The notes under the pieces: generated by a model
Databases searched by the model: none
The model's input: only the letters and a program-made list of their open reading frames with translations
Told to the model about the DNA's origin: nothing
In this document: positions 24,320-28,285 of the stretch, piece after piece
Numbering within the stretch: position 1 is the first letter of the stretch
Layout: each line of letters opens with the position of its first letter
Position numbers and translations under genes: made by a program
Origin: Methanorbis rubei
GTDB lineage: Archaea > Halobacteriota > Methanomicrobia > Methanomicrobiales > Methanocorpusculaceae
Assembly: GCF_032714495.1 (NCBI RefSeq)
Contig: NZ_JAWDKB010000004.1
Span: 124,001 to 188,000 of the forward strand
Reading direction: 5' to 3'
Length of the DNA: 64,000 nt

Positions 24320-24774
24320 GATAGGTGAGGGATGTTACCTTGTATGCGGTAACAAAAAATTCTCTGAATTATTCTTCAAACGAAAAATAAAGTTGAAAAA
24401 ATGATTTTTACAAAATTTGTTACCTCTGTTACCGGCAAAACCAATGTTATTCTTACCAAACCATGCAGCTGAATACAACAGTACACAACATCGGTAACAA
24501 AAAATGTAACTCGTTAGATACGAACTATTTTTTCAAATTTGTGCGTGAAAACTATCTGAATTTGTTACCGCATACTGCGGTAACATTTCGGCAGTCATCA
24601 GGACAACCTCACTCTGCCGGGCTTTGCAGTGACATTTTTGTGCTTTCCCGCGAGACAACAATCAGGTCGCAGGTATATGTTCTGTGTTTTGTGGAAGACT
24701 CAAAAATAACACAAATATATATGGTGCACAATCTTAATAACCTCAAAACTGTAATTAATAAGACGATATATTCG
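24320..24774. promoter_or_regulatory. 455-base leader with repeated TGTTACC/GGTAACA sites
   Basis: Upstream of the first Cache gene. TGTTACC or its complement occurs six times: 24333-24339, 24348-24354, 24419-24425, 24427-24433, 24493-24499 and the pair in a perfect palindrome at 24563-24585 (ten-base arms TGTTACCGCA and TGCGGTAACA around TAC). A TATA-like AAATATATATGG is at 24713-24724, about 50 bases before the ATG. An open frame from 24463 runs into the Cache gene but this part shows no protein-like composition. Confidence 0.5.
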
Positions 24775-26460
24775 ATGAATCGCCAACTCCTTCTCTCTCT
24801 TGTCATTATTGTTGTCGTGGTGTGTGCGGGTGCCATAGTACTTATTTCGATAGCTTCGGCCCCTTCGCCTGAACCGACACATGTTTCTGTTTCTGATGAT
24901 ATGGTGCAGATGTCTGAGGAGTTCTATCAAAGCATCGACGTGATAACCGACGAAATTGCTGACGCGATGCATGATGTTGCAGAGGAACTGTCCACATGTA
25001 CGCCTGACGACCCGGAAGCCAAAGAGATTCTGCGCGATCTGTTTGACAAGTATCCGAACTCTGCCGGAATTGCCTGGGTATCTGCTGACAATACCATAAT
25101 CAGTGTTCCTGTATACAGCATGGATCATGTTCTGACCTCCCGTGGATTTACAGACATTACGGAAAAGTCATTTACCGGACGTGATGTGATCTTAACCGAT
25201 CCTGTTATGTCAAATGTCTACGGTATGGTCGTATGTTTTATCGTTCCAGTCTATGCAGCTGACGGCAGCTACAACGGATATCTCTGCTTTGCTCATCTGC
25301 CGATTACGTTGCTGAACGAGACGCCGGATACGCCGTACTACAAAGACACCAAATATGAGTTATGGATTGCCAATTCTGACGGTACGGTGTTCTGCCATCC
25401 TGATCTTTCAACGATTGGATATAATTACTATACGAACGCGTTTTACCGTGGGCCAGGAAAGTCTTTCTCCGGCATACGTGCTATTATTGAAAACAATGAG
25501 GGAACCACCAGTTATGAGTTCTATGATCTAAGCAACACTGATGTTGTTGAGAAGGTATCTATCTGGAAAACCCTGTCGTTCGGTGGTCAGGACCTGCGTC
25601 TGGTACTACTGAACTATCCCTACAAGGTACCGGAGGTGTCGCTCCCGGACACCGTCAATCTGGCAGAGATAACTGACGTCACTCAGGCTCTCTATCTGTA
25701 TGCGAAAAAATACGGCAAAGGGGCTACTCTTGCAGCGATGAATGATCCTTCCGGTCCGTTTTCAAACACTGGGACCAAAATTTTTGCGATCTCAACTGAT
25801 GGTGTTGTTCTTTCCATGCCGTCGAAAGACAAGATTGTGGGATTGAACCGGATCAACTATCAGGATGCGTACGGCATACGTCAGGTAGCTACGATGATCA
25901 ACCGCGTTAGTCAGGGCGGAGGATACGTGCATTACTATTCTGATCCGCTTTCCTCGAAAAATCAGACAATCTTAGGTCTTGCATATGTGCTTCCGGTTGA
26001 TGAAACCTGGTTTGTCGGATCCGAGAAATCAGTACTGAACCACACTGTCTCCTTTAATCCCGATATGCGATCGAAACTGGTTCGGGCAGTGCAGCCTCTG
26101 CAGGAGTATGTCAATGTTCATGGCAAAGAACAGACACTGGCAGCGCTGAATGATCCTTCCGGGGAACTGATAAATCCTGATATTTCATTCGTTGCGATAA
26201 GTTATGATGGGAAACTTCTTGCCGATGCCTCCAAACCTGATATGATCGGGGACGATGTGTTTTCCCTTGTTGGTCCTCACGGGACATCCATTACCCGCGA
26301 TCTTGTTCTGATCGCAAAACAGGGAGGAGGATTTGAGTATGTGGAGACAAGGGATGCCGATAACTTCATGCTATCTCTCACGTATGTCGAGTCGGTAGAT
26401 GACGAATGGTTTATTGCAGGTTCGATCGAGTTGAGTTCACATCCGATCGTACTCTCCTAA
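24775..26460 (+). CDS. membrane-anchored extracellular Cache-domain protein, copy 1
   Basis: 561 residues. An N-terminal uncleaved signal anchor (MNRQLLLSLVIIVVVVCAGA and onward) is followed by an all-extracellular sensor part: a first Cache-like unit at about 40-270 (with GIAWVSADNTI and VPVYAADGSYNGYLCFAH) and two similar units that each begin KYGKGATLAAMNDPSG or VHGKEQTLAALNDPSG and end VDETWFVGS or VDDEWFIAGS. No cytoplasmic output domain, so it is not a complete chemoreceptor or kinase; it may bind a ligand and present it to another protein. The ATG at 24775 matches the start of its tandem paralogue. Confidence 0.8.
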   Translation: MNRQLLLSLVIIVVVVCAGAIVLISIASAPSPEPTHVSVSDDMVQMSEEFYQSIDVITDEIADAMHDVAEELSTCTPDDPEAKEILRDLFDKYPNSAGIAWVSADNTIISVPVYSMDHVLTSRGFTDITEKSFTGRDVILTDPVMSNVYGMVVCFIVPVYAADGSYNGYLCFAHLPITLLNETPDTPYYKDTKYELWIANSDGTVFCHPDLSTIGYNYYTNAFYRGPGKSFSGIRAIIENNEGTTSYEFYDLSNTDVVEKVSIWKTLSFGGQDLRLVLLNYPYKVPEVSLPDTVNLAEITDVTQALYLYAKKYGKGATLAAMNDPSGPFSNTGTKIFAISTDGVVLSMPSKDKIVGLNRINYQDAYGIRQVATMINRVSQGGGYVHYYSDPLSSKNQTILGLAYVLPVDETWFVGSEKSVLNHTVSFNPDMRSKLVRAVQPLQEYVNVHGKEQTLAALNDPSGELINPDISFVAISYDGKLLADASKPDMIGDDVFSLVGPHGTSITRDLVLIAKQGGGFEYVETRDADNFMLSLTYVESVDDEWFIAGSIELSSHPIVLS

Positions 26461-26577
26461 TTTTCATTTATTTTTTTTATCGAGGCAGAGTTGCCGATAT
26501 TCTCTATTTCCTCCATTCTGATGCATGTTCACAATCTTAATAATCTCAAAACTGCAATTAATAAGACGATATATTCG

Positions 26578-28285
26578 ATGAATCGCCAGCTTCTTCTCTC
26601 TCTCTCTCGTCGCTCTTATTGCTGTGGTGTGTGTGGGTGCTATAGTGATGGTTTCGATAGCCTCGACTTCTTCGCCTGAACCGACAAATGTTTCTGTTTC
26701 TGATGACATGATACAGATGTCTGAGGAGTTCTATCAAAGCATCGATGCGATAACCGATGATATTGCCACCGCGATGCATGACACTGCAAAGGAGCTGTCC
26801 ACGCTTACTCCAGGCGACAAGGAAACCGAGATAATTCTGCGCGATCTATTTAACGATTATCTGGACCCTGCCGGAATTGCATGGGTATCTGCTGATAATA
26901 CCGTAGTCAGTGTTCCCATATACAGCATGGCGAGCGTTCTGAACTCTCCTGAACTTCGAAATATTACGGAAGAGTCGTTTGCTGGACGCGATGTTATCTT
27001 AATCGATCCTGTCATGTCAAATGCCTACGGCATGGTCGTGTGCTTTGTCGTTCCGGTCTATGCAGCTGACGGCAGTTACAATGGATATCTCTGTTTTGCC
27101 CATTTGCCGATTACGTTACTAAACGAGACACCGGACACGCCATACTACAAAAACACCAAATATGAACTATGGATTTCCAACTCTGAAGGCACGATATTCT
27201 GTCATCCTGACATATCAACTATCGGATATAATTACTACACGAACGCGTTTTATCGTGGACCTGGAAAGGCCTTCACCGGCATTCGCCCAATCATTGAAAC
27301 CGGCGAAGGAACTACCGGATATCAGTATTATGATATAAGCAACTCTGATATTGTTGAAAAGGTGTGTATCTGGAAAACCCTGTCGTTCGGCGGTCAGGAC
27401 CTGCGTCTGGTACTGGTGGACTCTCCCTATGAAGCAACAGAAGTGTCGTTTCCTGACGCCATCGATCCGACAGTAGTGACTGACATTACTCAGACTCTCT
27501 TCCTGTATGCGAAAAAGTACGGTAAAGGGGCTACTCTTGCAGCGATGAATGATCCTTCCGGTCCGTTTTCAAATACAGATATCGAGATTTTTGCCATCTC
27601 AACTGATGGTATTATTCTCGCCATGCCGTCGAAAGACAAGATTGTGGGATTGGATCGGATCAATTTCCAGGATGCTTACGGTATACGTCAAATAGCTACA
27701 ATGATCAACCGTGCCAGTCAAGGCGGAGGATATTTGCATTACTATTTAAATTTGCCTTACTCGGAAAATCAGACGATCTTTGGTCTCGCATATGTGCTTC
27801 CGGTGGATGAAACTTGGTTTGTCGGATCTCGGGAATCAGTGCTTGACCCTCCCCATTCCTTTAATCGGGTGGAGGTCCGGTCGAAGTTGATCCGGGCAAT
27901 TCAGCCTGTACAGGAGTATGTTGCCGTCCATGGAAAAGAAGAAACACTGGCAGCACTGACCGATCCTTCCTCGGGACTACACACTCCTGATGTTCGGCTC
28001 GTTGCGATCAGTTATGATGGAAAATATCTTTCCTCCGACTTCTCATACCCGTATTCAATTGGAGATGATCTGTTTTCACTCACTGATCCTCATGGTACAT
28101 CTGTTATCCGCGATCTTGTTCTGATCGCAAAACAGGGAGGAGGATTTGGGTATGTGGAGGCGCGAGACGCTAATTCGGATGTCAATGATTTTTTGATATC
28201 TCTCGCTTACGTTGAACCGGTCGATGACGAATGGTTGATCGCGGGAACGATCGCTTTGGATATGCATTCGATCGTGCCATCCTAA
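26578..28285 (+). pseudogene. Cache-domain protein copy 2, frameshifted at a (TC)7 run
   Basis: Close tandem paralogue of the preceding gene; even about 50 bases of its upstream region are duplicated. From the ATG at 26578 the frame reads MNRQLLLSLSRRSYCC and stops after 33 codons, because a TC dinucleotide run (26595-26608, seven units) shifts the frame. Losing two units restores exactly the length seen in copy 1, and adding one unit also restores the frame. Downstream the open frame (from 26624 to 28285) encodes 553 intact residues of the membrane anchor remainder and the three Cache-like units. Either a phase-variable gene in its off state, a recent mutation, or a sequence error. Translation from internal GTG or ATG codons would lose much of the anchor. 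Confidence 0.75.

What the first reader, a model, noticed from the sequence alone, without database searches (positions are those of the whole stretch)
26595..26608. (TC)7 run that switches a surface Cache protein off: a possible phase-variable locus
The run lies in the membrane-anchor codons of copy 2 and shifts the frame; minus two or plus one unit restores it. Copy 1 has a shorter run and is intact. Downstream 553 codons are undamaged, so the lesion is recent or reversible. Dinucleotide contingency loci are well known in bacterial pathogens but rarely reported in methanogens.
Basis: partly seen in the sequence, partly recalled or inferred. Interest (0 to 1): 0.65.

Follow-up and report, generated by a model that had tools for sequence, protein, structure and literature searches.

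The report
TC-repeat frameshift in archaeal sensor gene
In a methane-producing archaeon, one of two neighbouring genes for a surface sensor-like protein has been knocked out of frame by two extra TC units in a short repeat; the damage is recent and could be undone by the same slip, but nothing yet shows that the cell uses it as an on/off switch.

Summary
A (TC)7 run at 26595-26608 lies in the membrane-anchor codons of the second of two tandem Cache-domain genes (genus Methanocorpusculum by contig-size matches). The frame from ATG 26578 ends at codon 34, while the rest of the gene (553 codons from GTG 26624) is open. Minus two or plus one unit restores the frame; copy 1 carries (TC)4 and is intact. 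Runs this long are expected 0.03 times per genome.

A codon-model test shows purifying selection on copy 2 up to near the present: omega 0.27 (about 0.19-0.37) over about 278 substitutions, 11 stops expected if it had been silent all along, none found. The lesion is therefore recent or intermittent. The three syntenic copies in the nearest sister species are all in frame.

Phase variation itself is not shown. Only one genome per species is held, the tract is short, MutS is present, the only other such tract in the genome is intergenic, and a Cache paralogue elsewhere in the genus carries an ordinary frameshift. A parallel +2-unit GA slip breaks a transporter gene in another species of the genus, so TC/GA slippage hits genes there.

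Best reading: a recent, in principle reversible slippage lesion. Contingency locus: possible, about 25%.

The parts
24775..26460 (+). copy 1: intact 561-aa Cache-domain protein with an N-terminal membrane anchor; in-frame (TC)4 at 24792-24799
24727..24774 (+). 48-nt leader of copy 1, 46 of 48 identical to the leader of copy 2
26530..26577 (+). 48-nt leader of copy 2; the AAATATATAT box found further upstream in copy 1 is absent here
   Evidence: promoter reading is inference
26578..26679 (+). copy 2, frame from the conserved ATG: 33 codons then TGA (off product)
26595..26608 (+). (TC)7 run inside the leucine/serine codons of the membrane anchor
26624..28285 (+). copy 2 body, open 553-codon frame from GTG 26624; two Cache modules

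Best explanation
Copy 2 is a formerly functional, membrane-anchored extracytoplasmic Cache-domain protein whose TC tract recently gained two units by slipped-strand mispairing, probably from an in-frame (TC)5. This put the anchor out of frame, so this genome makes at most a 33-residue peptide. The same slippage (loss of two units or gain of one), or gene conversion from neighbouring copy 1, could restore it. Shown: the run, the frame break, in-frame relatives, and purifying selection until recently. Inferred: the (TC)5 ancestor and slippage as the cause. Not shown: that cells switch at a useful rate or that selection maintains switching.
For: Run and frame arithmetic. The sister species G018 has three syntenic copies, all in frame, with (TC)4 or no run at this place. 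The copy-2 branch has omega 0.27 (about 0.19-0.37) against 0.39 elsewhere; omega = 1 costs 30 log-likelihood units; 11.3 stop gains expected if silent throughout, none present. Parallel case: in G007 an MFS transporter gene has (AG)6 where its 93%-identical intact homologue in G019 has (AG)4, also +2 units. TC/GA tract lengths differ among orthologous-looking intergenic copies in the genus.
Against: A base-calling or assembly error in the run cannot be excluded without reads. MutS is encoded in this genome, which should limit dinucleotide slippage. The ancestral (TC)5 state is not itself observed.
Confidence: 0.6

Rival explanations
1. True contingency locus: the TC tract is kept as a mutable switch, populations contain in-frame and out-of-frame cells, and selection favours switching of this surface sensor, as with CT tracts in the signal-peptide codons of H. 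pylori oipA.
For: Tract far above random expectation and at the 5' end, where an off switch is most effective; (TC)8 as well as (TC)5 would give a usable anchor, since the added Leu-Ser stays hydrophobic (inference); strong past constraint with an off allele; tandem paralogues; anatomical match to oipA (PMC10564699).
Against: No population data; only 7 units; MutS present; no other in-gene TC/GA tract of 6 or more units in this genome; the tract is not conserved in the sister species; (TC)7 also occurs inside an intact gene of G020.
Confidence: 0.25
2. The run length is an assembly or sequencing error and copy 2 is intact.
For: Draft genome of 15 contigs; (TC)5 would give an anchor matching copy 1 and the sister copies; copy 2 shows no decay.
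Against: A 14-base dinucleotide run is normally read reliably (general knowledge); a second, independent +2 case exists in G007.
Confidence: 0.08
3. Copy 2 is still made: by starting at GTG 26624 or ATG 26648, or by a -2 slip of ribosome or polymerase on the TC run.
For: The body is under constraint; a GTG start lies in frame; in a TC repeat a -2 shift re-pairs perfectly (inference).
Against: The GTG start would leave a short, uncharged and probably non-functional anchor, and ATG 26648 none; of the 26 homologues checked, the others, apart from the frameshifted L016, have an in-frame start before the anchor.
Confidence: 0.07

Closest known systems
Helicobacter pylori oipA (hopH) CT-repeat phase variation (PMC10564699)
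   Same: CT/TC dinucleotide tract in the signal or anchor codons of a surface protein; unit changes shift the frame and end translation early.
   Different: No protein homology is suggested; length polymorphism and on/off states are documented in hundreds of H. pylori sequences, none here; this genome encodes MutS.
Homopolymeric-tract frameshifts at 5' ends of prokaryotic genes, archaea included (PMC2831843)
   Same: Repeat-mediated inactivation near the gene start.
   Different: Poly(A)/poly(T) tracts rather than a TC dinucleotide; genome statistics rather than a single locus.
Extracytoplasmic Cache proteins (Pfam dCache_2, sCache_2)
   Same: Both copies match over the Pfam cut-off; the family has at least 11 members in this genome.
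   Different: The open frames end after the Cache modules; no kinase or chemotaxis output domain was detected.

Membership tests
Repeat-mediated phase-variable (contingency) locus | Simple-sequence tract longer than chance | tested here: met
   0.027 expected per genome at 7 or more units
Repeat-mediated phase-variable (contingency) locus | Unit changes toggle the reading frame or promoter of the gene | tested here: met
   -2 or +1 units join the frames, -1 and +2 do not
Repeat-mediated phase-variable (contingency) locus | Tract length varies among sibling strains or within a population | not testable with these tools
   One genome per species is held; the pattern search of viral contigs found none
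Repeat-mediated phase-variable (contingency) locus | Reversible on/off expression | not testable with these tools
   Needs culture, reads or proteomics
Repeat-mediated phase-variable (contingency) locus | Usual but not strictly required: several genes of the genome carry such tracts | tested here: not met
   Only one other TC/GA run of 6 or more units, and it is intergenic; other repeat types were not surveyed genome-wide
Extracytoplasmic Cache protein | Cache domain over the curated cut-off | tested here: met
   dCache_2 53.1 and 53.0 bits, sCache_2 51.1 and 48.1 bits
Extracytoplasmic Cache protein | N-terminal membrane anchor or signal | tested here: inconclusive
   Present in copy 1; in copy 2 encoded but out of frame with its ATG
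Decayed pseudogene | Relaxed constraint or further lesions | tested here: not met
   omega 0.27 on the copy-2 branch, no internal stops

The most novel reading that the evidence does not exclude
A dinucleotide contingency locus in a methanogen: the TC tract switches a surface ligand-binding Cache protein on and off in the population, with the intact neighbour as a constant copy and possible repair template.
Probability: 0.25. Interest if true: 0.65.

Novelty: new member of a known kind. Interest (0 to 1): 0.36.

Why it matters
Repeat-driven on/off switching is documented mainly in bacteria; a recent review names archaea as an open area (PMC11868660). If strains of this species differ in tract length, this would be a concrete archaeal case in a surface sensor-like protein, and it can be tested by amplicon sequencing of one short region. 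As a plain lesion it is an ordinary snapshot of gene turnover in an expanded sensor family.

Tried and rejected
Idea that the genus uses many in-gene TC tracts: a scan of 25 genomes did find many long TC/GA runs, but nearly all the long ones lie in an intergenic repeat family absent from this genome. L084 (G014) looked like a second 5' tract, but that gene's likely start is downstream of the run. AC runs served as a control and are nearly absent. Old pseudogene: rejected by the codon model. L023's reported TGA proved to be its normal stop. A pattern scan of viral contigs for other alleles found nothing. The bacterial promoter/terminator scan found nothing and is not suited to archaea.

Full report
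What is there. The window lies in G000, a 1.83-Mb draft genome of 15 contigs. Its relatives include contigs of exactly the sizes published for Methanocorpusculum labreanum Z (1,804,962), M. parvum XII (N50 74,097) and strain MG (N50 87,295), so the genus is Methanocorpusculum (inference from sizes). Two tandem genes lie downstream of a purN-like gene: copy 1 at 24775-26460 and copy 2 from ATG 26578 to 28285. Both match Pfam Cache families. Their proteins are about 75% identical, and at least nine more paralogues sit elsewhere in the genome.

The lesion. Copy 2 has (TC)7 at 26595-26608. The ATG frame ends after 33 codons. The rest of the gene is open, but its first possible start is GTG 26624, inside the anchor. 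Removing two units or adding one joins the frames; other changes of one or two units do not. Copy 1 has (TC)4. In sister G018 the same site between the same neighbours carries three copies, all in frame, with (TC)4 or no run. Runs of seven or more units are expected 0.027 times per genome.

Age of the lesion. I fitted a codon model to five sequences (two here, three in G018; 545 codons). The copy-2 branch carries about 278 substitutions with omega 0.27 (profile interval about 0.19-0.37), lower than the 0.39 elsewhere; omega = 1 is worse by 30 log-likelihood units. If the body had been untranslated for the whole branch, 11.3 stops would be expected; none is present. The gene was functional for most of this branch. 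The test cannot separate a recent fixed lesion from intermittent switching.

Is it a switch? For: tract length, position in anchor codons, and resemblance to the CT tract of H. pylori oipA (PMC10564699). Against or neutral: only two TC/GA tracts of six or more units in the genome, one of them intergenic; MutS present; (TC)7 occurs harmlessly inside an intact signal-peptide-peptidase-like gene in G020; and a Cache paralogue in G008 is frameshifted at a site without a long repeat, so ordinary loss happens in this family. Supportive of slippage as the mutational cause: in G007 an MFS gene carries (AG)6 where a 93%-identical intact homologue in G019 has (AG)4, the same +2 step.

Other routes. The 48-nt leaders of the two copies are 96% identical (46 of 48), while third codon positions are 70% identical, which suggests recent gene conversion or a shared regulatory leader. 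Conversion from copy 1 could also repair copy 2 (inference).

Verdict. Confirmed observation; interpretation partly supported. Most likely a recent slippage frameshift that is reversible in principle. A selected contingency locus remains possible at about 25% and could be tested with the reads behind this assembly.

Noticed in passing
L056-L060, L063-L067, L070, L077, L078, L080, L087, L089, L090, L094 (around base 2500): Dispersed intergenic element of about 290 bp in M. labreanum, M. parvum and close relatives, with a variable (GA)6-20 run in its loop and a long terminal stem; 17 of 43 consensus pairs show compensatory changes in 18 copies, one copy folds with z -6.0, and six sampled element loci gave no Rfam match. 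Absent from the window genome by pattern search.
   Followed up: partly
L072 around 2500-2512 (G007:C13:7713-7725): An MFS transporter gene is broken mid-gene by (AG)6; the intact 93%-identical homologue in G019 (L100) has (AG)4.
   Followed up: partly
L036:5065-5087 (G000:C3:125065-125086): (GA)11 in the intergenic region 62 bases before a pentapeptide-repeat protein gene and beside a divergent gene; possible promoter-spacing tract.
   Followed up: partly
L016 (G008:C1:49759-51120 and upstream): A Cache paralogue with a small frameshift near residue 105 outside any long repeat: an ordinary new pseudogene in the same family.
   Followed up: yes
window 24727-24774 and 26530-26577: Leaders of the two copies are 46 of 48 identical although third codon positions are only 70% identical.
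   Followed up: partly
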